This document shows positions 12,801 to 25,309 of a stretch of 25,309 nt of DNA, in pieces. The stretch is from a virus. Within the stretch, counting starts at the first letter, position 1; each line of letters begins with the position of its first letter. A model generated the notes under the pieces. The model did not search any database, was not told the origin of the DNA, and worked only from the letters and a program-made list of their open reading frames with translations. The position numbers and the translations under genes were made by a program. The DNA lies in IMG/VR virus record IMGVR_UViG_3300009152_000189, positions 1 to 25,309 of that record; one strand, 5' to 3'.

Positions 12801-15463
12801 ACGACGTACGGGCTTTTGGCGGCACCAAGAATCACAAGGAGATCTACGAGTTCCTGCGCGAGGCTATTGACCAGGGTCTTACCTCTAAGAAGCTTTCGGA
12901 TCGGCAGATCGCCAGACTGTCGACAGCGCTCCGCATTATCGGTTACGATGCAGACTTCATTGCAGGTCTAAACAACGGTGCCTACAGGGTTGCCCTTGCG
13001 CCAACCAACAACATGATCTACAAGCCTTCCTTCCTAGAGACAGCTGCTGCGCAAGGCGGCAGGAGAACAGGTATGTTCTCAAACAAGATTGTTCCGTTCG
13101 TTGATAACACTAGCGAAAGCGTAATCAAAGTGTCGAAGAAGATGGTGCAAAATCCAGAGTACAAGTCTACGTTCCTTCAGGAGTTTGGCACTAAGATGTT
13201 TAGCGATATCCCACAGAAGTATATCACGGCATCTATTAGGCGGCGGATGGCTTCGTACCTAGCTCGCGGCGGCCTTGGCGAAGAGGCCGTAGATGCAGTA
13301 CTCGACGATCTTGTTCAGAGAGGTATCGCAAACGGCGTGTCCGCAAGGGGGCTTGAAACCACTGAGCATTACACTGCATTCAAGAACGCTATCGATAGGG
13401 TTGGCGGGGTTGGTGCTTATGAGACTTTTGTCCAGTCATACATGCGCAATACTATTGACGGGGCAACAAAGTTCGACCCAACCAAGGCAGTAATGTACGC
13501 CTTCCGTGGCGACAAGAACACTATCGGTCTTACGCAGTACGCGACCGGTGGAGCAAAGGTATGGATGCCATCTATTGCAGGGTTTACAGATAGGCTCTAC
13601 CCGACCCTTAAGTTTAAGATGAACCCAATCTACTTTATTCAGGAGTGGCTTGAGAGCCCTACCCTGAACGCCGCTCGAGGTGTCGACGTTGATACCCTAG
13701 CCAGCATTAGCCGAGACGGTGCAGTGTCCAACGTAAGCGCTGGCCAGCTAAGAAACCTAAGTGACGTTGGCCCGGAGACTCAGAACTATTTGGACAACGT
13801 CAACTTCCTAGCTGTTTTCCGAAACGACGCCATTGCACAGGCAACGACTGGGCGATACGATGATGTGGTCGCAGCCACTGGCCTGTGGCAGAACATCAAG
13901 ACCGGTCGATCCCTTGGCAAGCTTGCCCAGAATAAGGAGAAGTACCGAGACGCATTGGCACTCGACCTTACTGCAAAGACGTTCTCTGAGACGCTAAGAA
14001 ACAGAGACTTCAACACTTGGTCAGCCCTAGCTGCACACTACGGCACGACCGACGCCCGCGCAATCTTTACTAACTATGTGAACTACAGGCTTAGACTTGG
14101 CGACACGAAGCGTGTGCTCTCCGACATCGAAGCATCCAGGCCAGCAGGTGTTGGCTTCAACCGCATCCCTGACCCAGAAGGTAACGTCCGGTTTGCCGCT
14201 AAGGTAGAGCTAATCACTGGCAACAGCAGACTCACTGAAGAGCTGGCTGGGCAGTTTGGCGGTGCCAACCTTGGGCCGGAAGATCTATTTGAGTACTACG
14301 TCCAGAACCCACATATCTGGAGAGCAGAGCTGGACAAGCATATGATTTCCCTTCAGGATGCTGGCTACGACATGACTGAAATCCTACCTGTTGCTGAAAC
14401 CCTTCGCAAGAGGATCATCAGGCTGGAGGATGCCATTAAGGAGCAGGGCTACGTTCCAGAAGATATGCGTGCCTTCCTGCCCGCCGCCGGCCTTGCCGAT
14501 GCATCTGACAAGCTGGGCGAGGCACTCAATAGGCTTGACATTCAGAGCATCGAGCTGATTCACAAGCAGTCCGCACTCAGGACTCTTGCCAGCGCGTCTG
14601 GCATGATCAACCCTGAGGCGATGACAGATCTTGGCGACATGGTTGTGCAGACGCTGCTAGTTGGCAAGGGCTTCTCTACCGAGGCGCAGAACGTTATTGA
14701 CGCTGTGAACAGATCCATCGACGCTGCCAAGAGCAGTGGCGCCAACATGTTCACGGAAGGGCGGGCGTTCTCTGAGGCTGTAAGCGACGCAATGCGCAAA
14801 GAGATTGCAGCTGACCCAAGCCTGATTAAGGTGTTCCAGGAGAACAGCCTGGAGATTATCTCCAACCGTAGCGCGGAAGAAACAGTATACAATGCGTTCC
14901 AGTACGCATACACAAAGGCGCTTGAGCAGGCTAACAAGACAACGTACTACGCATCGCAGCGCTCGTTCTTTGAGCGAACCATTAACCACCCACTGCTTGG
15001 TTTCTATCCGTACAGCTACATGTTTAAGAAGATCCTACCAGAGTTTATCCAGCTGCTCTTCAAGGGTGGCTTTGGTGTTAAGGCCCCAGGCGCTGGATAC
15101 TCCGCATACATGAATGTCCGTGACTACGTAGAGGCCCAAATCGAGGAAGATCCATCGTTCCGTCGAGCGCTAGAGGCAAAGGCAGAGCTGATGTATATGA
15201 CAACGATGCTTTTCCCAGGCGTCCCATGGGATCTGTCGGTTGTGCCGTCTCCTATTCTAAGAAACGTTTACAAGAGAATCATGACGGACAAAGACATTAC
15301 TCTTCAGAACATCCTCATTGACGACACCATCAGTAAGTTCTCTGACTTCGGCCCATTCACCTCGATCCCTATGGCAATCGAAGGTGGGCTGCAAGCATTT
15401 GAAGATAATAGCCCGAAGCCTATCAGACGGGTTCCGTCTGCATTCCCTTCGAGCTTGGATTAA
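9860..15463 (+). CDS. Giant probable virion / ejection protein (1867 aa)
   Basis: This is the largest gene in the window, placed between portal and scaffold, where podoviruses keep internal ejection proteins. Residues 152-170 read FSLLTDPLTYTPAVLGKVG. Residues about 176-214 are a Gly/Ala-rich apolar stretch with many small-xxx-small steps (GVAGAAAGGAVAGAMG, then GLVGGGIIGG), a glycine-zipper-like membrane segment. The long middle (230-1690) is mostly helical, with no enzyme motif I can name. Near the C-terminus, about 1703-1750, FERTINHPLLGFYPYSYMF and then KKILPEF form an aromatic block that I associate with giant phage proteins of this type. The ATG shares a base with the preceding stop. 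An internal protein that enters the host envelope is the leading inference. A tape-measure role is less likely given the gene order. Confidence 0.88.
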   Translation: MPLYYDDPPRRLPGTEVSTRDLRINLDIGGDQKVKDLRPDEQLFAAMGSAVTDTIKTGISIGSKLPILPEAVKLVADSPVGWTIGKTLEALQLASNVVSTGGAFLRKAVTRKEDLPADIQRMINSGADEMDILAYMVKTQRAWSNSPEANLVFSLLTDPLTYTPAVLGKVGMLKPIVGVGTGVAGAAAGGAVAGAMGLGPIGLVGGGIIGGVTGARKASQIAGRALERAGKLQRVEQRAALAGREIVPTAAREAVEVIPASIEKVPEAVSFLKTVFKKLKTAEGKADAAKPGFIDQVYVDSIMAQITRAVLRTGSGYSDEVKEAVIFFSGDKNAVNAAEDAARKAFDAGKITAEERVRRVKEVTDEAAKHQAVLDAEFGPIRDQIRKAIDDALTPPAAPQVPTKSPSSFGKEAEIAAFGGPLTSSEKLAIALSKPRGMNLSERLAVGRQATQAIAKAEKVLEGATDPGIIQAQKKIISNAQEAMKDINAIDEGIIYGTYSALRAITEGAGGPLKYLASAFTVPAHMLMQRELGGVRLNERVARYGAGIFGDGVTSAFNELVGRAIANFGMIGMQNVFLGKNTFRAANVAERIAKAYFDAKQDLRILSGSGADVKFTPQEIIEQMRTNVSAAAAQGGDTGIVGMFDATNLEELTKRIEFLSSVDQQAAALTPGRGTIPQIKALANYIESEMNIGDIQAIRRANPDAPAGQVFEKTFVSQIKESGVEAFHQAGVDQIKNQMVKLTFEVRNKQVARAMFEQHAKSATIALGQKWDEVADAWRRTFEERFGKFYDERGLPKSEKAIDEAAEEMLFVQSIGYSGASEVTGTVNRLFDRVQAADPTLIAEIGQESFEQLQNIFAEIGGKVNVVSKYHLFSDTATALRHAYMLIEKSTPEATSRYVDDEARLVTVNIEDNISSSVARRAGSYGDVATIKRQLKKMASNPKAPRGYVKILNKLIDGLDNTNNLDDVRAMWAKTAADELDDVRAFGGTKNHKEIYEFLREAIDQGLTSKKLSDRQIARLSTALRIIGYDADFIAGLNNGAYRVALAPTNNMIYKPSFLETAAAQGGRRTGMFSNKIVPFVDNTSESVIKVSKKMVQNPEYKSTFLQEFGTKMFSDIPQKYITASIRRRMASYLARGGLGEEAVDAVLDDLVQRGIANGVSARGLETTEHYTAFKNAIDRVGGVGAYETFVQSYMRNTIDGATKFDPTKAVMYAFRGDKNTIGLTQYATGGAKVWMPSIAGFTDRLYPTLKFKMNPIYFIQEWLESPTLNAARGVDVDTLASISRDGAVSNVSAGQLRNLSDVGPETQNYLDNVNFLAVFRNDAIAQATTGRYDDVVAATGLWQNIKTGRSLGKLAQNKEKYRDALALDLTAKTFSETLRNRDFNTWSALAAHYGTTDARAIFTNYVNYRLRLGDTKRVLSDIEASRPAGVGFNRIPDPEGNVRFAAKVELITGNSRLTEELAGQFGGANLGPEDLFEYYVQNPHIWRAELDKHMISLQDAGYDMTEILPVAETLRKRIIRLEDAIKEQGYVPEDMRAFLPAAGLADASDKLGEALNRLDIQSIELIHKQSALRTLASASGMINPEAMTDLGDMVVQTLLVGKGFSTEAQNVIDAVNRSIDAAKSSGANMFTEGRAFSEAVSDAMRKEIAADPSLIKVFQENSLEIISNRSAEETVYNAFQYAYTKALEQANKTTYYASQRSFFERTINHPLLGFYPYSYMFKKILPEFIQLLFKGGFGVKAPGAGYSAYMNVRDYVEAQIEEDPSFRRALEAKAELMYMTTMLFPGVPWDLSVVPSPILRNVYKRIMTDKDITLQNILIDDTISKFSDFGPFTSIPMAIEGGLQAFEDNSPKPIRRVPSAFPSSLD

Positions 15464-15471
15464 AAGGAGGT
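15463..15471 (+). promoter_or_regulatory. Full-length Shine-Dalgarno for the scaffold gene
   Basis: AAAGGAGGT starts at the last base of the giant gene's stop and lies 4 bases before GTG at 15476. It matches the anti-Shine-Dalgarno sequence almost completely and is the strongest site in the window. It explains the use of GTG as start and fits a protein needed in large amounts. Confidence 0.8.
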
Positions 15472-15475
15472 CAAA

Positions 15476-15994
15476 GTGACCGACGAAGTCGTGCTGAACG
15501 ACCAGGACCAGTCGCAGGTAGAGCCTGCCACTGACCAGGATAACGACATCACCACTTGGAAGAAGCGTCTCGCTGGTAAGGACCAGGCTCTGACGGCTAC
15601 CAAGAAGCAGCTGGATGATATCAAGGCTGAATACGAAAAGGTTCAGACTTGGAAGCTCCAGATGGAAGAGGCAAGTCTCACGGAGTTTGAACGTGCGCAG
15701 CGACGCATCGCCACTTTGGAGAAAGAACTTAAGGTTACTCGGGAGTCCGAGAAGCGTGAGCGACTAGCCAAGGAATACCCAACCTACGCTTCGTGGGCTT
15801 CGAAGGTGGAGGCCCTCTCCGATGAGGAGCGTGCCGCTGAATTCGAGGCTCTCATGAAGACGGGCGGGGCTCCAAAGCAGGAGTTCACAGATCCAAACAA
15901 GCCGGCGAAGCAAGTTGCTTCGACCGGGAAGAAGCGCTCCTCTGAGGAAATTGTCAAGGACATCGCTGCCCTTGGCAATCCATGGGGCGAGTAA
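15476..15994 (+). CDS. Capsid scaffold-like coiled-coil protein
   Basis: The 172-residue product lies directly before the major capsid gene, the usual place of a scaffold. The N-terminus (1-27) is acidic and polar (DEVVLNDQDQSQVEPATDQD). Residues about 28-110 form a heptad-like, Glu/Lys/Gln-rich helix (KKQLDDIKAEYEKVQTWKLQ, then RRIATLEKELKVTRESEKRE). The tail has KKRSSEEIVKDIAALGNPWG. Scaffolds guide assembly of HK97-fold capsids and leave before DNA entry. The composition and position support this, with no protease domain fused. The next gene starts 14 bases later with its own ribosome binding site. Confidence 0.8.
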   Translation: MTDEVVLNDQDQSQVEPATDQDNDITTWKKRLAGKDQALTATKKQLDDIKAEYEKVQTWKLQMEEASLTEFERAQRRIATLEKELKVTRESEKRERLAKEYPTYASWASKVEALSDEERAAEFEALMKTGGAPKQEFTDPNKPAKQVASTGKKRSSEEIVKDIAALGNPWGE

Positions 15995-16008
15995 ATAAGG
16001 AGTAAATA

Positions 16009-17013
16009 ATGGCAACGAATACGCGTGCAGTTATTGACGGTAACTCGTCAAATGCATATTCAGCGCTTATTACGGAGCTCGTTTCGCAGCAGGCTCAGGA
16101 GAACCTGCGAGACCGTCTGGTCCATGCGATGCCGGGGAACTACACCTCGGGTCGCTTCCAGAAGGGCAGCAACGAGATCCGCTATGCGCGCTACCCAGAC
16201 CTCACCCCGCTTGGCATCGCGGATACCCTTACTGAGGCAGGAGCCCCGGCTGAGTATGATCTCACGATCACGACTGAGTCCTTCGTTCCTAAGCAGTACG
16301 GTAAGGTTCTCAAGATTTCAGACCTTGCGCAGCTCGACAGCCCGCATGACCTGATCGCAATCGCGTCGGAGCGCCTCGCACGAGCCGCAACCGAGTCGAT
16401 GGACCAGATCATCCGCGACGTTCTCAAGCAGGGCACGAATGTTCGTTACGCTGCAGGCCGCGCTGGGCGCTCAACTGTTGCTTCGACGGACAAGCTCACC
16501 GGCTTGGAGATCAAGCAGACCGTAGCCAAGATGAAGGCCGCTAACATCCCAACCTTCGCGGATGGGTTCTATCGCGCAATCATCCACCCTTCGGTTGAGT
16601 TCGACCTCTTGACCGACACGAGCACGAACGGCTTCCTCGAGGCCACGAAGTACACTAAGTCGCTCGACCTCCTCAACGGAGAAATCGGCGCGTACGCTGG
16701 TGTTCGCTTCTTGGTATCGCCACAGGCCGCGACGTTCACTGGCGGCGTTGGTGGTGCTCTCACCATCCACTCGTCGTTCTTCTTCGGGCCTGATGCCTAC
16801 ATCGTAGGCGACAGCCAGACGCTTCAGAGCTACTTCGTGGCTCCGGGCGGCGACCACAGCGATCCAATCGCCCAGGTTGCAACGCTTGGCTTCAAGATGC
16901 GCTTCGGTGCGATCCTCCGTGGCGAGGGCACGACCGGCGAGTTCGATGGTAGCAATACCTCGACTGGCCAGCCGCGATACCTCCGCGTGGAGTCGGTTGC
17001 TTCGACGCTCTAA
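16009..17013 (+). CDS. Major capsid protein, N4-gp56 family
   Basis: The 334-residue protein is the HK97-fold shell subunit. Characteristic text includes GRFQKGSNEIRYARYPDLTP, followed by GIADTLTEAGAPAEYDLTIT, then ESFVPKQYGKVLKISDLAQL and a helix with SERLARAATESMDQIIRDVL. The segments YRAIIHPSVEFDLL and GEIGAYAGVRFLVSPQA are typical of the P-domain and A-domain of N4-gp56-like capsids. An AAGGAG sequence precedes the ATG. It lies between the scaffold and head-tail adaptor. Identification is strong from the family signature. Expression is probably high, and a structured RNA element follows the stop. Confidence 0.93.
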   Translation: MATNTRAVIDGNSSNAYSALITELVSQQAQENLRDRLVHAMPGNYTSGRFQKGSNEIRYARYPDLTPLGIADTLTEAGAPAEYDLTITTESFVPKQYGKVLKISDLAQLDSPHDLIAIASERLARAATESMDQIIRDVLKQGTNVRYAAGRAGRSTVASTDKLTGLEIKQTVAKMKAANIPTFADGFYRAIIHPSVEFDLLTDTSTNGFLEATKYTKSLDLLNGEIGAYAGVRFLVSPQAATFTGGVGGALTIHSSFFFGPDAYIVGDSQTLQSYFVAPGGDHSDPIAQVATLGFKMRFGAILRGEGTTGEFDGSNTSTGQPRYLRVESVASTL

Positions 17014-17026
17014 TCGTAACTAGGGA

Positions 17027-17056
17027 GTGGGGGTCGGGCTTCGGCTCGGCCCCCGC
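17027..17056 (+). promoter_or_regulatory. UUCG-capped GC-rich RNA hairpin after the capsid gene
   Basis: Bases 17027-17039 pair with 17044-17056 as a 13-bp stem with three G-U pairs, closed by a C(UUCG)G tetraloop, an exceptionally stable cap. No run of U follows (GCAACCACAAGG), so it is not a normal intrinsic terminator. It may protect the capsid message from 3' decay, be a processing site, or lower read-through into the tail genes. The gap 17014-17073 holds nothing else except the AAGGAG ribosome binding site for the next gene. Confidence 0.6.
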
Positions 17057-17073
17057 AACCACAAGGAGACCTT

Positions 17074-17709
17074 ATGGCTATTACACTATCATCACTCAGG
17101 ACTATAGTACGGCGAGACCTGCGTGACTCTGGTGCCACTAAGACATGGAGTGACGACGAAGTCAACGACATGATCAAGTGGGGCGTCCAGGAGGTCTCGC
17201 GCATCCGACCACAGGAGACCTATGAAGAAGTTGCTTACACTGCTCCTGCCGTCGGAGCTTTCTTTACTATCAACACACTTACGCTCGACACTGTTTACCG
17301 TGTTGATGCGTATAAGAACAGCAAGCTTATCGCTTCGGTTCCATTTGCTCAGGATGCCCAGGCTACTGGTGGATGGGACTTCCTTAATGGAAAGCTGCAC
17401 ATGCCACCCTATCTCGTCCTGCCTGACGGATCTACACTGCGGGTGTTTGGATACAAGCACTATACGCAGCCCACGATTGACTCGTCCTCTATCGAGCTCG
17501 ACGACGATGCTACTAACGCCGTGCGTGCATGGGTCCAGAAGGAAGCGATGTTCATGCTGATCTCTGACCGCGTCCGATTCCAGCAATGGCAGGTCGCAGC
17601 AGGAGCATCAGACACTAACAGCATTCAGTTGGCCCAGCTTTACAGTGCGGCAGAGCGACGATGGGACAAGATCTCTAAGTCAGTGCGCCGCGTAAGGAAG
17701 ACACCCTAA
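17074..17709 (+). CDS. Head-tail adaptor / connector protein
   Basis: The 211-residue protein follows the capsid gene, where connector proteins of N4-gp56 phages are found. It begins with a helical segment (LRTIVRRDLRDSGATKTWSD followed by DEVNDMIKWGVQEVSRI), the usual start of gp6-like adaptors, then a beta-rich insertion (LDTVYRVDAYKNSKLIASVP) and C-terminal helices (AVRAWVQKEAMFMLISDRVR). Such proteins form a ring under the portal. AAGGAG precedes the ATG. The adaptor role is inferred from fold pattern and position. Confidence 0.75.
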   Translation: MAITLSSLRTIVRRDLRDSGATKTWSDDEVNDMIKWGVQEVSRIRPQETYEEVAYTAPAVGAFFTINTLTLDTVYRVDAYKNSKLIASVPFAQDAQATGGWDFLNGKLHMPPYLVLPDGSTLRVFGYKHYTQPTIDSSSIELDDDATNAVRAWVQKEAMFMLISDRVRFQQWQVAAGASDTNSIQLAQLYSAAERRWDKISKSVRRVRKTP

Positions 17710-18560
17710 TGGATCTTAGCGCAGCAGTAACTATCCAGCGTCCTGGGGCTGCGCCCCTGGATATCAATAGCATCCGCGACCCCAACTCCGTTGGGTCATC
17801 GCCTGTTTCTGGGTACATGATTGAGCAGGTAGACTTCTCATCTGTGCCCATTACTGCGTTCACGGAGGACACCCCGCTGGTGGATGGTGTTGACAGCTAC
17901 GATCCGTACCTGTCAGCACGCACCATTAACATTGTCCTGTCGGTATACGGCAGCAGCTACGGCGACTTCTGGGACAAGATAACTGCTCTTAACGCTGCGC
18001 TTCAGGCTCAGCCTATGGCTGCTAGTACCGCAACGTACGCTGCGCTGGAGGCGGACGGCAAGCGCAAGCTATCATTTAGTCAGCCTAAGGCCGTAGGATC
18101 ATATAGCCTGTACATGATGGTCCGTCCTATGGCGCTGCCAAGATTCGTCACGGACGCATCGTCTTCAGCAGGAGATCCAACAAGGGGATACTCAGTTAAG
18201 TGCAGCGTTAGCCTTATCGCAGAGGACCCATACAAGTATTTCGAAACAGAGTCTACTTTTTCTAGAGTTGGCAGTGGGGCCCTGACTATCTCCAATACCG
18301 GCACAACAGTTGCTTGGCCAACAGTTACCTGGAACGTAACATCACTTAGCACCGTATCATTCGGTACTGGCGATACCATTGTTCAGCACACAGGGGTATC
18401 AAGTAATGTTACCGACACCTTTAAGACCGCGCAGTCTACTAGCTCATCTACTTTAACAAGATACGAATTCTTTAGCCTGCCGCCTGGTAACAAGTCAATA
18501 ACTATATCTGGCCAGTCAGGGCAAACGGTAACTGTAACAATTAGAGAGGCTATCCTCTAG
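17709..18560 (+). CDS. Distal tail (Dit)-like protein
   Basis: The 283-residue protein shows the layout of siphovirus distal tail proteins. A first domain has an aR-I-x-L strand and a helix (ARTINIVLSVYGSSYGDFWD then KITALNAALQAQ), followed by KRKLSFSQP and a DPYKYFETES motif. A second beta domain has GALTISNTGTTVAWPTVTWN and later strands. Dit subunits form the hub ring joining tail and tip. The ATG overlaps the previous stop (TAATG). The next gene is a tip protein, in line with a Dit-Tal order. No tube or tape-measure gene precedes it, which is unusual for a long-tailed phage. The match is to the family pattern, not to a specific protein. Confidence 0.7.
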   Translation: MDLSAAVTIQRPGAAPLDINSIRDPNSVGSSPVSGYMIEQVDFSSVPITAFTEDTPLVDGVDSYDPYLSARTINIVLSVYGSSYGDFWDKITALNAALQAQPMAASTATYAALEADGKRKLSFSQPKAVGSYSLYMMVRPMALPRFVTDASSSAGDPTRGYSVKCSVSLIAEDPYKYFETESTFSRVGSGALTISNTGTTVAWPTVTWNVTSLSTVSFGTGDTIVQHTGVSSNVTDTFKTAQSTSSSTLTRYEFFSLPPGNKSITISGQSGQTVTVTIREAIL

Positions 18561-20701
18561 TGCCAGCTAAGAACATTGTAGTGATCCGTAGCCGTAATTC
18601 CTACGACTCTGCCGATGAGTTCTGGCAGGGTGCTCCCGTTGCCGTAATCACTGATGCGCGAGACATTGGCGTGCAGTTGTATGCTAACGATGGCGGATCA
18701 ATGTTCTTCACCTTGCCAGTTGACCATCCGGCTCTACCGCTAATCGACCCACTTAACCAGCACTACGTTGTGCAGCGCTGGAACGGCAGCAGCTATGATA
18801 CCATCCAATCTGGGTTCATCACCGACTATGACGCCAGTGCCAACGAGGTGGTCATCAATGGTGCGGACTACATGACCACTCTCAACAAGTACTACACCCC
18901 AATCCACGGCCCGGAGCTGGGGGCCAAAGCAATCCCAAACACAGACACTACAACTATTCTATCCACCACGCCTAGCGCAATCATCGCAGCAGCAGTGTCT
19001 AAAGATCGAGCAAAGTCGTCCGAAGGGTACGCTGTGTCCTCAACTGACTCCACCTATAAGAACGTAGGGAAAATTTCAGCCTACTCTGGCGCAGCCCAGT
19101 CATCTACCAACCCATCAGGTACTCGAGATGCAATCACTGTGGCGTATGAAGAGGTTTCAGGTGTCAAAACTGGGACAGTTATTCTGAGCGGTGCTCTATA
19201 TATTTGGAGAAGCTCAACAGCTAACACGTTTCAGGAAGGGGAGACCGGCAAGCTTATTGAGGGTAACTTCTCTATTGGTACCAGCTCTTCTGATAAGGGT
19301 AAGATTGGATTCATCATTAGCTCAAACCCAGGCGGACCACTTGCAAAGGTTGAGTTCGACGTATACATTGCGGTAAGCAGCCTAGACATTGGATATACGA
19401 GCGGTGGATACGGTGCCCTTAACTTCAGCGTAAAGCTACGACCGGTATCTAACTACGTCTCTGCCACAGAAGACCATACTGGATCAGACTTGAACAGGAC
19501 TCTCTCTATTCTTTCAGAGGGCGTAAGCTACGAGTTCTATGTAACCCCGTACTATGAGGGTAACCTTTCTCCATCAGACGCAACAGCAGACTTTGACCAG
19601 TACATCTGGGGCGCTACAACTCGCGCACCTGAGTCTACGTTTACTGCTGGCCTTCAGACTAACACTATTAGAGACGCTTTTGACGATCTTCTTGATCCAA
19701 ACGATCCAGCCAACATCCTTGACCGAAGCGATGACTACCCAAGTATTTCACCAGCACCAGTACCACTAATCAAGTTCATGTCACTAGAGCATCTAGGAAC
19801 AAACACAACAACCAAACACCCGTACGTGACAGCAGGTCAAGGCCCGGTAGACTTCATGCGTGACTTGGCAGATATCGAGATGGGATCTAGGTCTAATGGC
19901 GAGAAGGTTATATTTAACTTCTATGGGGTACCCTCCGCGTCTCCTGACGGGAAGAAGCTGAGTGTACACCACTCTGTCTCGCCAGACCCACAGGCTACCA
20001 TTATCTACCCTGGGCAGATCCTGGACTACAACGTAACAAACAAGCGTAGCGCCAAGGTTACCTCAGCCAGAGTAATACCTACCACGGACTTCCTCATCGG
20101 CTCCAGCACAGAAGGCTCATCAGGTTCTAAGACTAAGGGTGCTGTGAAGAACCCCGCAAGCGGCATAACTAGTTCCAGCCCTGCCCTCCCTAACGTCACC
20201 AGCCAGGGCGGATTCCTTTCGGCTGACGCAGCTGGGAACTTTGCACAGGGTATCATCAATGACTTCGGAGAAGACGCTGACACTCAAATGATTAAGATTT
20301 CTTTACGAACAGAGCAGTTCGGCCCTATTGGTGTGGCTGGTACGCCTAAGCTTGGCGAGACTGTTCGCGTGGTTGTTCGCCGTAAGAACGTTACGGTCGG
20401 TGGCGACGAGCTGTCCGGTCTGTACAATGTTGGCGGCATGCAGTGGCTAGCTAAGATCGACGGCACAGAGCGACTTGCTTTGGACCTGGTCAAGCCCAAC
20501 AAGTTCAAGGGCGCAGCCATTACCTGGGAGCGCAAGCCCAACCCGGCACCTGAGCCATCGAATGATACCCCGCCACAGCCGGGCACCCCGCCACCGCCAA
20601 GGCCACCAACGCCATCAACGCCACCTCGACCAGGCCCTAGCGGCACTGCAAGGCCAGGCATCCCGCGCATTAACGGCAGGCCTGATAGGTTCCAGCTATG
20701 A
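18560..20701 (+). CDS. Tail tip protein, ReqiPepy6 Gp37 / Tal-like
   Basis: The GTG start shares a base with the previous TAG. The first 120 residues read VVIRSRNSYDSADEF, GAPVAVITDARDIGVQLYAN, DGGSMFFTLPVDHPALPLID and GFITDYDASANEVVINGADY. This pattern of strand, paired 'l..p....pl..' segment and 'G.i......~v~v.G.d' matches siphovirus Gp37-like tail proteins. A middle insertion (about 130-330) looks beta-rich, perhaps fibronectin-like. A further tail-hub-like part has VDFMRDLADIEMGSRSNGEK and GETVRVVVRRK. The last 60 residues are a Pro-rich linker (PQPGTPPPPRPPTPSTPP), which may flex or attach a fibre. It probably forms the tail tip that contacts the host. Confidence 0.75.
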   Translation: MPAKNIVVIRSRNSYDSADEFWQGAPVAVITDARDIGVQLYANDGGSMFFTLPVDHPALPLIDPLNQHYVVQRWNGSSYDTIQSGFITDYDASANEVVINGADYMTTLNKYYTPIHGPELGAKAIPNTDTTTILSTTPSAIIAAAVSKDRAKSSEGYAVSSTDSTYKNVGKISAYSGAAQSSTNPSGTRDAITVAYEEVSGVKTGTVILSGALYIWRSSTANTFQEGETGKLIEGNFSIGTSSSDKGKIGFIISSNPGGPLAKVEFDVYIAVSSLDIGYTSGGYGALNFSVKLRPVSNYVSATEDHTGSDLNRTLSILSEGVSYEFYVTPYYEGNLSPSDATADFDQYIWGATTRAPESTFTAGLQTNTIRDAFDDLLDPNDPANILDRSDDYPSISPAPVPLIKFMSLEHLGTNTTTKHPYVTAGQGPVDFMRDLADIEMGSRSNGEKVIFNFYGVPSASPDGKKLSVHHSVSPDPQATIIYPGQILDYNVTNKRSAKVTSARVIPTTDFLIGSSTEGSSGSKTKGAVKNPASGITSSSPALPNVTSQGGFLSADAAGNFAQGIINDFGEDADTQMIKISLRTEQFGPIGVAGTPKLGETVRVVVRRKNVTVGGDELSGLYNVGGMQWLAKIDGTERLALDLVKPNKFKGAAITWERKPNPAPEPSNDTPPQPGTPPPPRPPTPSTPPRPGPSGTARPGIPRINGRPDRFQL

Positions 20702-20922
20702 CCAGGAGCCAGTTCGAGATCCTCTTGTCAAGACTTGACGACATCGACGTTCGTATGCGTGCCCTCGAGGTAGAGAGCGCCGGAAACAAAGCTGTGCGGA
20801 ATGCTAGACAAGCAGGCGATTTGGAGGCAAAATGGAAGGCAGGGATCGTGGCGTCCATTGTGGGCGGTGTCGTAACCCTGGCAGCCAAGGTGTACGACGC
20901 CTTGACAAACGGAGGTAAGTAA
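20698..20922 (+). CDS. Coiled-coil plus single membrane segment protein, holin-like (XhlA-type)
   Basis: The 74-residue product starts at an ATG overlapping the tail-tip stop (ATGA). Residues 6-45 are a coiled-coil-like helix (RLDDIDVRMRALEVE). Residues 48-66 (AGIVASIVGGVVTLAAKV) form one hydrophobic segment near the C-terminus. This layout matches small XhlA-type proteins and other phage holin-associated proteins. They help or regulate membrane disruption with a second holin. The gene sits two genes upstream of the HAD protein and three upstream of the cysteine peptidase. The alternative is an unrelated small membrane anchor. Confidence 0.55.
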   Translation: MTRSQFEILLSRLDDIDVRMRALEVESAGNKAVRNARQAGDLEAKWKAGIVASIVGGVVTLAAKVYDALTNGGK

Positions 20923-21638
20923 TGGCAAAGGCTAACCTAGTAGATCGCGTGGGCGAACTCAAGGAGCAGGGCCTGTCCTTCTCCAAGATTGGGGAGCTGC
21001 TCAACATGAGCAAGGACCAGGTTCAGAAGTTCCATAAACGCTACGCTGAGGGGATCCCGGAAGATCTCTTGCCAGCGCAAAAGAATGCTTCGAAGACTCC
21101 GCCGTTCGTGGGGATCGACATCGCCTACTTCGACATCGAGACAACGTTCAGCAACTGGCGACGCATGCTGTGCGGTTCGATTGCCGACAGCCTTGGTAAC
21201 GTCATCACGCTCAGTCACGACACGCACCCTGGCAAGAACTGGCAGGACGATAGCGTGCTGGTGAAGGCATACTGCGAGGAGCTCGACAAGTACGACGTGA
21301 TCGTCGGCTGGAACTCCAAGCTGTTTGACGTGCCAGTACTCAACTCGCGCATGCTGTACCACGGATTCAAGCCGTACAATCCACGCATGCACCTTGACCT
21401 TATGTACAAGGCGACTGGCTCATCCATTGCGATTGGCCGTAAGTCTCTGGACAATGTGTCCAAGTATTTCGGTGTCCAGAACAAGAAGACTCCGCTTGAC
21501 CCACGCACGTGGGACGATGCGGATCATGGCGACCGCGCAGCATACGAGAAGATCATCGAGCACTGCGAGGCGGACGTGCTGGTCCTTCGGGATGTGTACG
21601 CCAAGCTTAAGCCGATGGTGCACATCCTTCACCGATGA
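20922..21638 (+). CDS. HTH fused to a DEDD-type 3'-5' exonuclease-like domain
   Basis: The 238-residue protein has an N-terminal helix-turn-helix segment (about 7-41, VDRVGELKEQGLSFSKIGEL followed by LNMSKDQVQKFH). From residue 67 it has a DnaQ/YprB-like RNase H fold exonuclease. Motif I is YFDIETT (D71, E73), motif II is VGWNSKLFDVP (D136), and motif III is HCEADVLVLRDVY (H214, D218). The third motif has His where PolB-type enzymes have Tyr four residues before the Asp; I recall this variant from phage members. It may act in DNA degradation, proofreading or processing of replication intermediates. Fusion to an HTH is unusual and suggests DNA targeting. The ATG overlaps the previous stop. Confidence 0.8.
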   Translation: MAKANLVDRVGELKEQGLSFSKIGELLNMSKDQVQKFHKRYAEGIPEDLLPAQKNASKTPPFVGIDIAYFDIETTFSNWRRMLCGSIADSLGNVITLSHDTHPGKNWQDDSVLVKAYCEELDKYDVIVGWNSKLFDVPVLNSRMLYHGFKPYNPRMHLDLMYKATGSSIAIGRKSLDNVSKYFGVQNKKTPLDPRTWDDADHGDRAAYEKIIEHCEADVLVLRDVYAKLKPMVHILHR

Positions 21639-22003
21639 CCGAAGACGAAGTGCAGTCGCACTTTGACCGGAGTGTTGCCGTGGACTTTGACGACACTATT
21701 GTCGTCAGGGTCTTCGGCACTTTGGTTCCTGCCAAAGATTGCATCGAAGCGCTGCAGATTCTAAGAGACCAGGGGTACAGGATCATCATCCACTCAGCAC
21801 GATCATGGGAGCACTGGCAAGACAGGATCGAGAGAGAGAACGAGATGATCAACCTGCTTAATAGCTGGGAGATCCCGTACGATGAGGTCTATGCTGGTAA
21901 GGGTAAGCCACCAGCTATGGCGTACATCGACGACCGTGGGCTGCGGTTCGCAGACAACTGGATGGACATCGCAAGAGTAATCATTGAGAAGGGGAAAGTA
22001 TGA
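21635..22003 (+). CDS. HAD-superfamily phosphatase-like protein
   Basis: The 122-residue protein carries the HAD motifs in order: motif I VDFDDT (D17, D19, T21), motif II HSAR (S54), a Lys at 89 or 91 (GKGKP) and motif IV YIDDR (D99, D100). It is small and capless, like phage HADs that act on nucleotides, sugar phosphates or the polynucleotide 3'/5' end. The substrate cannot be told. The ATG overlaps the exonuclease stop (ATGA) and the next gene also starts by ATGA, so the exonuclease, this gene and the peptidase form one coupled group. End repair with the exonuclease is a possible role. Confidence 0.75.
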   Translation: MTEDEVQSHFDRSVAVDFDDTIVVRVFGTLVPAKDCIEALQILRDQGYRIIIHSARSWEHWQDRIERENEMINLLNSWEIPYDEVYAGKGKPPAMAYIDDRGLRFADNWMDIARVIIEKGKV

Positions 22004-22584
22004 GCAAGCTAAAGATCGTAACGCAAACGGATAGTATCGAGGGCAAGGATACAAAGGACATCAGCGATAACTGGATGGATGACTGCGCGTGGGCTACGCT
22101 TGCGTGTGCAGCTAACCATCTAACCGGGTCTAAGTTCAAGTCTGCAGACGCAATCAAGTGGGGCGAGAAGGTTGGGCGCAAGGACCGCGATGGCCTGCCT
22201 GACCCAACGTCGCTTGACCAGCTGGTAAAGGCTGGGCCACTGGCTGGCGTTAAGGTGACTAAGCCTAAGAACTGGTCGGCAGTAGAGGCTGCGATCAATG
22301 CTGGTGCAGTGATCATCATCAATGTTGATCAGGCCAAGAACTATCCGCCAGTTCGGATGAGCAAGTGGCATGTCGACCGTGAGAAGCGCAAGCCTGGCAA
22401 GCCGTATGGTCACGCCACCTGCGCAGCTAAGACGGCAGACGGGTATGAGTGGGCTGACCCAACGATGAGTGGCAAGGGCGACGAGGAGTATGCCGTTGTC
22501 CTACCGTGGGATAGCATCAAGCAGATCGCCCGGTCGAAGGGGGATGCCCCTCACACGAGGTGCCTGATCGTAACTAAGAAGTAA
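22000..22584 (+). CDS. C39-like cysteine peptidase, candidate endolysin
   Basis: The 194-residue product has a papain-like arrangement: C29 in WMDDCAWATLACAANHLTG, H138 in YGHAT and D153 in WADPT. This order and spacing fit the peptidase_C39_2 / cysteine peptidase-amidase fold. No signal peptide or cell-wall-binding repeat is visible. In phages such enzymes can act as endolysins that cut peptidoglycan cross-bridges, and it follows the coiled-coil membrane protein in the same transcript. A role in cleaving a host or virion protein is the alternative. The gene is the last before the terminator at 22612. Confidence 0.6.
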   Translation: MSKLKIVTQTDSIEGKDTKDISDNWMDDCAWATLACAANHLTGSKFKSADAIKWGEKVGRKDRDGLPDPTSLDQLVKAGPLAGVKVTKPKNWSAVEAAINAGAVIIINVDQAKNYPPVRMSKWHVDREKRKPGKPYGHATCAAKTADGYEWADPTMSGKGDEEYAVVLPWDSIKQIARSKGDAPHTRCLIVTKK

Positions 22585-22587
22585 CGC

Positions 22588-22616
22588 TTGACATCCCATG
22601 TGGGATGCCCTAAGAT
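22588..22616 (+). promoter_or_regulatory. Sigma70-type promoter of the recombination module
   Basis: TTGACA (22588-22593) is a perfect -35, followed by a 17-base spacer and TAAGAT (22611-22616), one change from the TATAAT consensus. The expected start is at about 22622-22624. It lies between the lysin candidate and the Cas4-like nuclease gene and is the only clear promoter I find in the window. The spacer contains a palindrome, and the -10 lies in the left arm of a terminator. Confidence 0.8.
22592..22607. promoter_or_regulatory. Perfect palindrome in the promoter spacer, candidate operator
   Basis: CATCCCA-TG-TGGGATG is a 7+7 inverted repeat beginning in the -35 hexamer and filling most of the spacer. 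Placement where a dimeric repressor would block RNA polymerase suggests an operator. No repressor gene is in the window. The same sequence is not obvious elsewhere here. Confidence 0.5.
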
Positions 22617-22647
22617 CCCCAGTGGACGGACCCACTGGGGGTCTTTT
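22612..22647 (+). terminator. Intrinsic terminator ending the structural/lysis transcript
   Basis: Bases 22612-22625 pair with 22632-22645 as a 14-bp stem with one G-U pair around a 6-base loop, and T residues from 22644 to 22647 follow. This is a standard rho-independent terminator for transcripts coming from the left. Its left arm contains the -10 of the downstream promoter. Transcripts starting at 22622-22624 would lack most of the left arm and should not terminate here. Confidence 0.8.
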
Positions 22648-22664
22648 AGTTTATAGGAGGAGCT

Positions 22665-23375
22665 ATGGAAACAATAGCTAAGGCGTTTGACCTGGGGTTG
22701 AAAGCCAACCGTAAGGATCGTCCTTCCGGTACGTTCTTCCGTGGCAGCAAGCTTGGCTCGTGCCTGCGACAGCAGTACTACGATGCCACAGGCGAGCCCG
22801 TCACTAACCCATTCGAGGATCGGCTGTACCGGATCTTTGAGCAGGGCCACGTCATCGCTGAGACCTTTGAGCGGAACCTCAAAGCGTCTGGGCTATTCGA
22901 CGAGTTTGAGTCTGAGGTACCTGTAGAGATGGAGAAGTACAACTTCTCTGGGAACATCGACCACCTTGTTCAGTGGAAGAATAGAGACCATATGTACGAG
23001 AACGGATGGGAAGTTATCGAGATGAAGTCGATGAACTCGAACGGCTTTAAGTACCTTAAGGGACCTAAGCCAGAGCATGCCATTCAGGCTGCTAGTTATG
23101 CGCTTGCGTTGGAGTATAACGGCTTCCTCCCCGAGGAGACCTACGATCAGCAGATCGCAGCTCGCGTTGTGTACGTCAGCAAGGATGACTTCCTGATTAG
23201 TGAGTATACTATTGACAGGTCCTGGTATGATAAGGCTATGCGGGTCCTCAAGATCGGCAACACGTTTAAGGAGCAAGGACGGATTCCGTTTAGGCTCCCG
23301 GTGCCGGAGGGTAAGGATCCCAAGAAGATGTGGCCATGCGGCGGGTGCCAATGGCTGACTAAGTGCAGGGGGTAA
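22665..23375 (+). CDS. Cas4/RecB-like PD-(D/E)XK exonuclease with iron-sulfur cysteines
   Basis: The 236-residue protein carries PD-(D/E)XK motifs: D99 (NIDHL), E119 and K121 (IEMKSM), and Q141 with Y145 (AIQAASYALAL). Four cysteines are placed as in Cas4/AddB-type [4Fe-4S] proteins: C33 in GSCLRQQYYD near the N-terminus, and C225, C228 and C234 at the C-terminus. An upstream His (H62, QGHVI) also fits the motif. The expected activity is 5'-3' or 3'-5' processing of DNA ends to give single strands for the ERF protein encoded next. There is no CRISPR array here, so a Cas role is not implied. The ribosome binding site is GGAGG; this is the first gene after the promoter. Confidence 0.85.
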   Translation: METIAKAFDLGLKANRKDRPSGTFFRGSKLGSCLRQQYYDATGEPVTNPFEDRLYRIFEQGHVIAETFERNLKASGLFDEFESEVPVEMEKYNFSGNIDHLVQWKNRDHMYENGWEVIEMKSMNSNGFKYLKGPKPEHAIQAASYALALEYNGFLPEETYDQQIAARVVYVSKDDFLISEYTIDRSWYDKAMRVLKIGNTFKEQGRIPFRLPVPEGKDPKKMWPCGGCQWLTKCRG

Positions 23376-23376
23376 C

Positions 23377-23898
23377 ATGGCGGATAAGATCAGTCTAGCT
23401 ACCAAGATCGCCAAGGTCATGGAGGCCGTTGGCTACGTGCAGAAGGGCGGCACGAACAGCGCCCAGGGGTACAAGTTCGTACAGGCATCTGCCGTTGCGG
23501 ACAAGGTACGCGCTGAGCTGAGCAAGCTCAACGTGTCGATGACCCCGACCAACATTGACGTGATTAGCGAGGGGCTGACACCGTCTGGTAAGCAGGCGCT
23601 GCTCACTCTCCGCTTCACTTGGACGCTCACCGACGGCGACAGTGGCGAGACTATCTCGTTCCAGTCCATCGGTACGGGGGCGGACAGCGGCGACAAGGCT
23701 GCGTATAAGGCAGCTACCGGCGCACTCAAGTACGCTCTGCTCACAGGGTTCCTGATCCCAACAGGCGATGACCCAGAGGCAGACGGCAAGACGGATGACG
23801 AGATCATTGCTGCTAAGGCTAAGGATCTCTTCAACGGGGTGGTTCAGCAGCCGACCAAGAAGAAGGCTGATGTAGTGGAAGAGGAGTTTGCATTCTGA
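23377..23898 (+). CDS. erf: ERF-family single-strand annealing protein
   Basis: The 173-residue protein has the ERF layout: an N-terminal helix, GYKFVQASAVADKVRAEL (31-48), a beta sheet with LLTLRFTWTLTDGD, then TGADSGDKAAYKAATGAL (100-117) and YALLTGFLIPTGDDPEAD. These are typical of P22 Erf-type recombinases, which anneal complementary single strands during phage recombination, repair or circularisation. The C-terminus is acidic and aromatic (VVEEEFAF), like the tips that phage and bacterial SSBs use to recruit partners. It directly follows the Cas4-like nuclease, which would make its substrate. Confidence 0.9.
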   Translation: MADKISLATKIAKVMEAVGYVQKGGTNSAQGYKFVQASAVADKVRAELSKLNVSMTPTNIDVISEGLTPSGKQALLTLRFTWTLTDGDSGETISFQSIGTGADSGDKAAYKAATGALKYALLTGFLIPTGDDPEADGKTDDEIIAAKAKDLFNGVVQQPTKKKADVVEEEFAF

Positions 23899-24278
23899 TG
23901 GCAAGACTAGACATCTGGCTGAGCGACAAGAAGACGCCAGTCAACAAGGTATCCAAGAACGGTAACAACTATCTCGAAGTGTACGGCACCATGCAGACGG
24001 CAGCGTACGAGGAGTGGGCAGACAGCGACCGCGCTAATGCCGCACCTGATCGGTACGCTTACGTGACGCTGCGGTTCTTTGACTCTGAGGCAGAGGATCA
24101 TGTCGGCAAGGTGTACGAGTGGGCTGTCTCGCAGGAGAAGGACCCGCGTCCGAACGTGCACGTAGTAGGCAAGCTCAACGAGGACCGCGAGTACAATGGC
24201 AAGATGTACTACACCATGCTGGTTTCTGACATCTCACCGTTGCGCTATGGTCCACTACGGGGCAAGAAGAATGCGTAG
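23898..24278 (+). CDS. Putative single-strand DNA-binding OB-fold protein
   Basis: The 126-residue product starts at an ATG overlapping the ERF stop (TGATG). It has beta-strand-like segments with alternating apolar residues (YLEVYGTM, YAYVTLRFF, VHVVGKLN and KMYYTMLVSDI), with a GKL.....Y.G......V. pattern like the middle of SSB proteins. Position between the annealase and a resolvase-like gene fits an SSB. It lacks the usual acidic C-terminal tip and ends GKKNA. I call this an inference. A small replication or recombination accessory protein is the alternative. Confidence 0.55.
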   Translation: MARLDIWLSDKKTPVNKVSKNGNNYLEVYGTMQTAAYEEWADSDRANAAPDRYAYVTLRFFDSEAEDHVGKVYEWAVSQEKDPRPNVHVVGKLNEDREYNGKMYYTMLVSDISPLRYGPLRGKKNA

Positions 24279-24627
24279 GCGAGAGCTTTCCATGAAGATC
24301 GTAGACAGCATCGAGGCGTGGAAGGCTGACGGCTTTGACGACTGCATCGTCGGAGTTGGCCAGCAGTTCACCGAAGGTGGCCAGGTCTTCATCTTCATCT
24401 ACAGCAAGAAGGCGATCATCGAGAGTATCGCCAATGACATCGTCGAAGAGATTGGCAACCGCGTCAACACGTCGGATGAGGAGCGAGCTGTGCTTGCTGG
24501 GTCAGCCTACGATGACGCAGTTGAGTTTTTCGACTACAACATCGCCGGTGCGTACATCGGGCGTGGCATGCCTGTGTTCTTGGAGGACACGTACGACAAC
24601 ATGGTGAGGGAGGTCCTAGGTGAGTGA
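24271..24627 (+). CDS. Hypothetical acidic protein (118 aa; 111 aa from a later ATG)
   Basis: The ATG at 24271 overlaps the previous stop by 8 bases. A second in-frame ATG at 24292 begins MKIVDSIEAWKADGFDD and may be the true start. The protein has IVGVGQQFTEGGQVFIFIYS and KKAIIESIANDIVEEIGNR, then DEERAVLAGSAYDDAVEFFD and an acidic end. It looks folded, with alternating strands and helices, but I recognise no family. Translational coupling to the OB-fold candidate and the resolvase-like gene suggests a role in DNA metabolism. Confidence is for a real gene, not a function. Confidence 0.7.
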   Translation: MRRRELSMKIVDSIEAWKADGFDDCIVGVGQQFTEGGQVFIFIYSKKAIIESIANDIVEEIGNRVNTSDEERAVLAGSAYDDAVEFFDYNIAGAYIGRGMPVFLEDTYDNMVREVLGE

Positions 24628-24967
24628 TGCCTCACGTAGGGGTAGACTCAACCGCTCGAGGGGTAATGCCTTCGAGCGGGAGGTCGCTAAGAAGTTTGGC
24701 GGCAAGCGAGTCGGACAGTACGGTGGACCGGAAGACGTAGCGGCAGGACAGTTCAACATCCAGGCCAAGTGTGGCCAGATGTTCAGCGAGAAGTACTGGC
24801 GCTGGTTGCAGGCGGTGCCACGCAAGGCGGACCAGACTCCGCTCCTCGTAGTCGGTGATGCTCCTGGGTCAGGGGCTAAGCGGAGGGTAGTAGTTATCAT
24901 CGAGGAGACCGACTTCCTCGATCTGATTGGAGGCGACGATGCAGAGACCACGGAAGAAACTGAATAG
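24620..24967 (+). CDS. Holliday-junction resolvase-like PD-(D/E)XK nuclease
   Basis: The GTG start overlaps the previous stop by 8 bases. The 115-residue protein has the motif order of Hjc-type resolvases: RGNAFEREVAKKFG (E19 and E21), GGPEDV (D39) and QAK (Q48, K50), followed by a strand ending PLLVVGD and RRVVVIIEE. The second acidic position of the core is Gln instead of Glu, a known variation in the superfamily. The expected role is cutting branched DNA before packaging or during recombination. It lies in the recombination module, 3' of ERF. The tail (DDAETTEETE) is acidic. Confidence 0.7.
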   Translation: MSDASRRGRLNRSRGNAFEREVAKKFGGKRVGQYGGPEDVAAGQFNIQAKCGQMFSEKYWRWLQAVPRKADQTPLLVVGDAPGSGAKRRVVVIIEETDFLDLIGGDDAETTEETE

Positions 24968-25112
24968 CTTTGACCTGGCAGTGTCCTGGGCAAAGATCTT
25001 TGAGCTTATTCGCAACCGGCTCAAGGAGTTGGAGGTACCAGATGCCGACAACATCGCAGCGGCTGCGGCAAACATTCTAGCTAAGGAGGGCGCCAATGGC
25101 GACAACACCTGA
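24939..25112 (+). CDS. Small hypothetical protein (57 aa)
   Basis: I chose the ATG at 24939 over the TTG at 24927 because GGAGG (24929-24933) sits 5 bases upstream. The gene overlaps the nuclease end by 29 bases. The product MQRPRKKLNSFDLAVSWAKI then FELIRNRLKELEVPDADN is a basic start with an amphipathic helix, followed by an Ala-rich helix (IAAAAANILAKEG). No family is recognised. Confidence 0.55.
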   Translation: MQRPRKKLNSFDLAVSWAKIFELIRNRLKELEVPDADNIAAAAANILAKEGANGDNT

Positions 25113-25293
25113 TGAGAAACAAGAAAACGATAACGGATATCAGAAGGTACTACGAGCGGCGAAAGCGGCAGTCCATGGAGTTGGGGAAAGAAGCCTACTC
25201 ATTGCGGCAGCAGCGGGACTTGCAGTCGGACTTGATCACCCTGCGCAAGCAGCAAGCCTTGCAATCCTCATCTATGTCGTCACCAAGCGGTAG
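25096..25293 (+). CDS. Small membrane protein (65 aa), unknown
   Basis: The ATG follows AAGGAGGGCGCC and overlaps the previous gene by 17 bases. Residues 1-31 are polar (MATTPDEKQENDNGYQKVL then RAAKAAVHGVGER). Residues 33-62 are apolar (SLLIAAAAGLAVGLDHP, AASLAILIYVV), probably one or two short membrane segments. A VTKR end follows. Position in the recombination block makes a holin role uncertain; I do not recognise it. Confidence 0.6.
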   Translation: MATTPDEKQENDNGYQKVLRAAKAAVHGVGERSLLIAAAAGLAVGLDHPAQAASLAILIYVVTKR

Positions 25294-25299
25294 GGTACC

Positions 25300-25304
25300 G
25301 GAGG
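25300..25304 (+). promoter_or_regulatory. Ribosome binding site for a gene outside the window
   Basis: GGAGG followed by CATTC lies after the last stop (25291-25293) and ends 5 bases before the window edge. A start codon at the expected distance would lie just outside, so the same-strand transcript continues. Confidence 0.5.
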
Positions 25305-25309
25305 CATTC

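What the first reader, a model, noticed from the sequence alone, without database searches (positions are those of the whole stretch)
22588..22650. A promoter whose -10 box lies inside a terminator, so only incoming transcripts can terminate
TTGACA-N17-TAAGAT places the start at about 22622-22624. The terminator stem has its left arm at 22612-22625 and right arm at 22632-22645, followed by T residues. RNA arriving from the left contains both arms and can terminate. RNA starting at this promoter lacks nearly all of the left arm and should escape. One 60-base stretch thus separates two transcription units. The layout is seen directly; its behaviour is inference.
Basis: partly seen in the sequence, partly recalled or inferred. 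Interest (0 to 1): 0.75.

Follow-up and report, generated by a model that had tools for sequence, protein, structure and literature searches.

The report
Phage promoter folded inside a terminator
In this uncultured phage and 36 related ones, a single 60-base stretch between two gene blocks is both the stop signal for RNA arriving from the left and the start signal for the next block, overlapped so that RNA started there cannot form the main stop structure; the sequence and its conservation are clear, but nobody has yet measured the RNA ends.

Summary
TTGACA (22588-22593), 17 bp, TAAGAT (22611-22616) overlaps a 14-bp intrinsic-terminator stem (22612-22625 / 22632-22645) followed by a T-tract; five of six -10 bases lie in the left arm. 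It is not chance: shuffled windows give this register 0.0075 times per strand, and the element sits at the same junction in all 36 relatives found (one is truncated). There TTGAC, the 17-bp spacing and TAAGAT are invariant while the spacer drifts to 24% identity, and the stem stays 100% paired with compensatory and G-U changes. In complete relatives the structural-gene block ends here and the recombination/replication block (Cas4-like, Erf, DnaB) starts here. A second, unrelated set of T4-like marine phages carries the same composite before an SSB-UvsX block, so the design arose at least twice. It scores as a weak terminator, so escape is probably incomplete. I rate it a new variant of known parts. 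No transcript-end data exist.

The parts
22000..22584 (+). last gene of the incoming (structural) block, 194 aa, no family match; its stop codon TAA ends 3 nt before the -35 box
22588..22593 (+). -35 box TTGACA; TTGAC invariant in all relatives
22593..22606 (+). spacer hairpin ATCCC-ATGT-GGGAT (longer palindrome CATCCCATGTGGGATG 22592-22607); function unknown
22611..22616 (+). -10 box TAAGAT, invariant; bases 22612-22616 are also the start of the terminator left arm and its A-tract
22612..22625 (+). left arm of the terminator stem (14 bp)
22621..22625 (+). inferred transcription start region (5-9 nt after the -10); not measured
   Evidence: inference from sigma70 promoter geometry; sequence
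22632..22645 (+). right arm of the terminator stem
22629..22643 (+). nested small hairpin GACCC-ACTGG-GGGTC that promoter-born RNA can still form
22644..22652 (+). T-tract TTTTAGTTT
22655..22660 (+). Shine-Dalgarno AGGAGG of the next gene
22665..23375 (+). first gene of the outgoing block: Cas4-like exonuclease
23377..23898 (+). second gene of the outgoing block: Erf-like ssDNA annealing protein

Best explanation
This is a composite boundary element: an intrinsic terminator whose left arm and A-tract are made out of the -10 region of a sigma70-type promoter reading the same way. RNA arriving from the structural block carries both arms, forms the 14-16 bp hairpin and is released in the T-tract. 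RNA started at the promoter begins about 22621-22625, inside the left arm, cannot form that hairpin, and runs on into the recombination/replication block with a leader of about 40 nt that ends in a good ribosome-binding site. Shown: sequence, fixed register, conservation, covariation, genome context, recurrence in a second phage group. Inferred: the start site, termination of incoming RNA, and escape of the new RNA (probably incomplete, because of the nested small hairpin).
For: All 36 viral loci encoding a relative of the downstream Cas4-like protein (62-99% identity) have the element in the same place, one truncated at the contig edge. In 21 distinct cores the mean pairwise identity is 0.92 for the -35 and 1.00 for the -10 but 0.53 (minimum 0.24) for the spacer, whose length is always 17, so the promoter is selected as a promoter. 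The stem pairs in 100% of 321 cells, against 29-59% when slid, with changes on both sides at 2 pairs and G-U forms at several, so it acts as RNA rather than as a DNA operator. Full-stem terminator scores average +21, close to lambda tR2 at +25 by the same formula. In the complete circular relatives it is the only TTGAC-N18-TANNAT match and separates the structural block from Cas4/Erf/DnaB. Folding full against start-truncated RNA: about -21 to -26 against -7 to -10 kcal/mol. An unrelated T4-like group has the same composite in front of SSB-UvsX-exonuclease in 52 of 80 loci with nearly fixed register; most of the rest keep the hairpin without the promoter.
Against: No transcript start or end has been measured. 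The nested small hairpin could terminate some promoter-born RNA. Four relatives (L005, L006, L015, L017) have weak T-tracts and full-stem scores of +6 or below. The relatives form a few clades, so conservation counts are not independent events.
Confidence: 0.77

Rival explanations
1. Attenuator reading: the nested small hairpin (22629-22643) makes promoter-born RNA terminate too, after about 22-30 nt, so the element is a terminator for everything unless a phage factor relieves it.
For: The small hairpin is paired in 23/23 distinct sequences with C-G, U-A and U-G at one pair; it abuts the T-tract; in some relatives (L019, L024, L027, L034) it scores +11 to +13.
Against: Average score -7, and down to -45 in L005; 5-bp stem of -4 to -7 kcal/mol. 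Part of the pairing is forced by the full stem and by the fixed -10. No antitermination gene was recognised in the genes searched.
Confidence: 0.15
2. Palindromic operator: the inverted repeat is a DNA-binding site for a repressor of the promoter, not a terminator.
For: A long perfect palindrome covering -10 and start site is a common operator position; a second palindrome lies in the spacer.
Against: G-U pairs are frequent (UG at one pair in 17 of 23, and at several others), which a DNA operator does not favour; a T-tract follows on one side only; stem strength and T-tract score like an intrinsic terminator.
Confidence: 0.05
3. Occlusion switch: the main effect is that polymerases arriving from the structural block pause and terminate over the promoter region and so keep the early promoter off late in infection, as lambda tR1 does to PRE.
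For: Pausing at a terminator overlapping a promoter causes strong interference in lambda (PMC6593788). Any incoming polymerase must cross this promoter.
Against: In lambda the orientation is convergent; here it is the same direction, and the release point (22646-22652) lies about 30-36 bp past the -10, so a terminating polymerase covers the promoter only partly. It can coexist with the best explanation.
Confidence: 0.1
4. Chance overlap of an unrelated promoter-like string with a terminator.
For: Bulk counts of promoter-like and terminator-like sites equal shuffles.
Against: 0.0075 expected per strand; invariant in all relatives with a drifting spacer; recurrence in a second phage group.
Confidence: 0.01

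Closest known systems
Ordinary intrinsic terminator followed by a promoter (tandem arrangement)
   Same: Separates two transcription units with the same two parts, same direction.
   Different: Normally the promoter lies after the hairpin. In 546 terminators from unrelated viral contigs, -10 boxes peak 22-51 nt after the start of the left arm (30 cases) and only 2 lie in the left-arm register. Here the start site is inside the left arm, so new RNA lacks the main hairpin.
Lambda tR1 overlapping PRE (PMC6593788)
   Same: A phage terminator physically overlaps a promoter.
   Different: Convergent promoter; the effect there is pausing-enhanced occlusion, not sparing of the new RNA.
Terminated-polymerase reinitiation (PMC6978380)
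   Same: Terminator next to a downstream promoter; polymerase that released RNA can diffuse and start again, 37-55% in single-molecule tests.
   Different: Tested with separated, artificial units; whether overlap improves it is unknown.
Leader attenuators and riboswitches
   Same: Alternative hairpins (full or nested) share one arm.
   Different: The choice here is set by where the RNA starts, not by a ligand, ribosome or factor.

Membership tests
Intrinsic (Rho-independent) terminator | G+C-rich stem of 7 or more bp directly followed by a T-tract | tested here: met
   14 bp, 6-nt loop, TTTTAGTTT; score +26 in the window
Intrinsic (Rho-independent) terminator | Pairing maintained as RNA (compensatory and G-U changes) | tested here: met
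   100% of 321 cells, changes on both sides in 2 pairs, G-U at several
Intrinsic (Rho-independent) terminator | RNA 3' ends in the T-tract without Rho | not testable with these tools
   needs transcription assay
Sigma70-type promoter | -35 and -10 hexamers at 16-18 bp | tested here: met
   TTGACA-N17-TAAGAT, 10 of 12; spacing 17 in every relative
Sigma70-type promoter | Selective conservation of hexamers over spacer | tested here: met
   0.92 and 1.00 against 0.53 identity
Sigma70-type promoter | RNA 5' triphosphate end 5-9 nt after the -10 | not testable with these tools
   needs 5' end mapping
Lambda tR1/PRE-type occlusion | Terminator reads against the promoter it overlaps | tested here: not met
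   both read on the + strand
Leader attenuator | Terminator lies wholly inside the leader of its own promoter | tested here: not met
   for the main stem: the inferred start lies inside the left arm; only the nested small hairpin lies in the leader

The most novel reading that the evidence does not exclude
The overlap is a relay: polymerase that terminates at the T-tract stays on the DNA, slides back about 30-60 bp and restarts at the overlapped promoter, so strong late transcription feeds rather than starves the recombination block, while the nested small hairpin sets how many restarts get through. The overlap would then be a recurring phage device and not just compact packing.
Probability: 0.12. 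Interest if true: 0.75.

Novelty: new variant of a known kind. Interest (0 to 1): 0.52.

Why it matters
A stop signal that ignores RNA born at the same place would give a compact insulated promoter: incoming transcription is cut off while the next unit starts within a few bases. Its conservation in one phage group and independent recurrence in another suggest that selection favours the overlap itself. It makes a clear prediction (the same site terminates or not depending only on where the RNA began) that a short cell-free assay can test, and it warns automated annotation that discards either the promoter or the terminator when they overlap.

Tried and rejected
Isolated phages: no near or protein-level match to the junction or the Cas4-like gene; weak hits of the hairpin to T5-like phages lie in other, convergent-gene contexts. 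The Cas4-like profile found no relative in bacterial genome contigs and no new viral locus beyond the first search. Other copies of the element in the genomes: none; weaker model hits on the opposite strand are the same palindrome. Rfam: no family. Lambda, phiC31, Bacillus phage Page and 50 kb of T4 showed no such overlap, but phiC31 uses its own promoters, so that scan does not test it. Ten literature searches found no paper on this arrangement in the held library; most subscription literature was not searched. From memory only: phiC31 early terminators lie close to its phage promoters (Ingham and colleagues, 1990s); I could not check how far they overlap. Spacer palindrome as a conserved operator: sequence not conserved between clades, so not pursued.

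Full report
OBSERVATION. Read directly, the 80-nt gap between the genes at 22000-22584 and 22665-23375 contains TTGACA at 22588-22593, 17 nt, TAAGAT at 22611-22616, a stem with arms 22612-22625 and 22632-22645 and a 6-nt loop, TTTTAGTTT, AGGAGG and ATG. The scan of 10000-25309 lists this as its best promoter (10/12) and its longest terminator stem (14 bp), while the totals of each class equal shuffles. In 400 dinucleotide shuffles of the whole window a promoter of 10/12 or better with its -10 in the left arm of an 8-bp or longer terminator occurred 0.0075 times per strand.

CONSERVATION. Searching 2.9 million viral contigs with the Cas4-like protein gave 36 loci (62-99% identity). All have the element directly upstream; L023 begins inside it. 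TTGAC, the 17-nt spacing and TAAGATCC are invariant. Between 21 distinct cores, mean pairwise identity is 0.92 for the -35, 1.00 for the -10 and 0.53 for the spacer, with a minimum of 0.24. The promoter is therefore held by selection apart from the hairpin. The stem pairs in 100% of cells, with both-sided changes in two pairs and G-U variants in others, against 29-59% paired when the partner is slid. G-U tolerance points to RNA pairing, not to a DNA operator. The sequences fall into a few clades, so counts are not independent events.

CONTEXT. Three relatives are circular assemblies of 41-43 kb (123-nt end overlaps). Upstream of the element in the window lie terminase, portal, head and tail genes and then a polymerase-exonuclease-like gene and two small genes; downstream, in the window and its relatives, lie the Cas4-like exonuclease, Erf-like annealing protein and a DnaB-like helicase. 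A block of opposite strand follows. The element is the only TTGAC-N18-TANNAT site in eight of the ten records searched; the other two have one more such match. It is single-copy in each by covariance model. In L005 the upstream gene ends differently but the element stays with the downstream gene. In 18 relatives the stop codon TGA of the upstream gene is inside the -35 box.

MECHANISM. A sigma70 start 5-9 nt after the -10 falls at about 22621-22625, leaving at most five left-arm bases. Folding shows -21 to -26 kcal/mol for the full hairpin and about -7 to -10 for RNA truncated at the start. By the d'Aubenton-Carafa formula the full hairpins average +21 (lambda tR2 +25 by the same formula) and the nested hairpin -7 (reference hairpins typed from general knowledge). 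So incoming RNA should terminate and promoter-born RNA should mostly escape. It pairs in all 23 distinct sequences with C-G, U-A and U-G at one position, although part of that is forced by the full stem. It abuts the T-tract, so weak attenuation of promoter-born RNA is possible. Folding also leaves the Shine-Dalgarno mostly open in promoter-born RNA (0.65-0.79 unpaired) but the start codon mostly paired (0.15-0.17 unpaired).

HOW UNUSUAL. In viral loci fetched by strong-promoter patterns that do not mention a hairpin, 2 of 441 TTGACA-N17-TATAAT promoters, and none of 114 GCTTGACA-N17-TAAGAT outside this family, have the -10 in a terminator left arm. Around 546 terminators there is no peak in that register (2 cases), but there is one at 22-51 nt after the left-arm start (30 cases), the ordinary terminator-then-promoter order. 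One of the two cases, L204, opened a second conserved family: in marine T4-like phages, upstream of an SSB gene followed by a UvsX-like recombinase and an exonuclease, 52 of 80 loci have TTGAC(A/T)-N17-TATAAT (variants in a few) followed at once by a terminator hairpin and T-run; most of the rest keep the hairpin but lack the promoter. Again the upstream stop codon abuts the -35 box in most, and the spacer drifts (0.45 identity). The two families share no recognisable sequence, so the arrangement arose at least twice, both times in front of a recombination/replication block.

COMPARISON. Each part is textbook. Overlap of a phage terminator with a promoter is known for lambda tR1 and PRE, but convergently and acting by pausing-enhanced occlusion (PMC6593788). 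Polymerase that has terminated can slide and restart at nearby promoters (PMC6978380), which makes an overlapped promoter a natural landing site; this is speculation here. I found no paper describing this arrangement in the held open-access library, which leaves out most subscription journals.

VERDICT. Real, conserved and recurrent. It is a new variant built from known parts; the functional claim is likely but unmeasured, and the 'only incoming RNA can terminate' wording is too strong.

Noticed in passing
L204 880-1150; L472-L551 upstream of the SSB gene: Second, unrelated family with the same promoter-in-terminator layout before an SSB-UvsX block of T4-like marine phages; several members keep the hairpin but have lost the promoter.
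   Followed up: partly
22593-22606: The 17-nt spacer forms a 5-6 bp tetraloop hairpin in about 20 of 23 distinct relatives, by unrelated sequences at different positions (mean -5.6 against -2.0 kcal/mol for mononucleotide shuffles). Role unknown.
   Followed up: partly
L018-L037, -35 box: The TGA stop codon of the upstream gene is embedded in the -35 TTGAC in 18 relatives.
   Followed up: yes
546 terminators in unrelated viral contigs: Consensus promoters cluster 22-51 nt after the start of terminator left arms (30 cases in two 15-nt bins against about 4 per bin elsewhere), i.e. promoters packed right behind terminators.
   Followed up: no
L191 441-520: A third overlap: TTGACA-N17-TATAAT followed by GAGGGTC-loop-GACCCTC-TTTTTTT, just before a thioredoxin-like gene; only one near-identical relative known.
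   Followed up: partly
L005 upstream of 4924: In L005 the gene before the element has a different C-terminus, yet the element is kept, so it seems to travel with the downstream Cas4-like gene.
   Followed up: partly
22000-22584: Conserved 194-aa gene before the element has no PHROG or Pfam match; by eye its NWMDDCAWATLACA and HATCAAK motifs recall papain-like or C39-like cysteine peptidases (untested).
   Followed up: no
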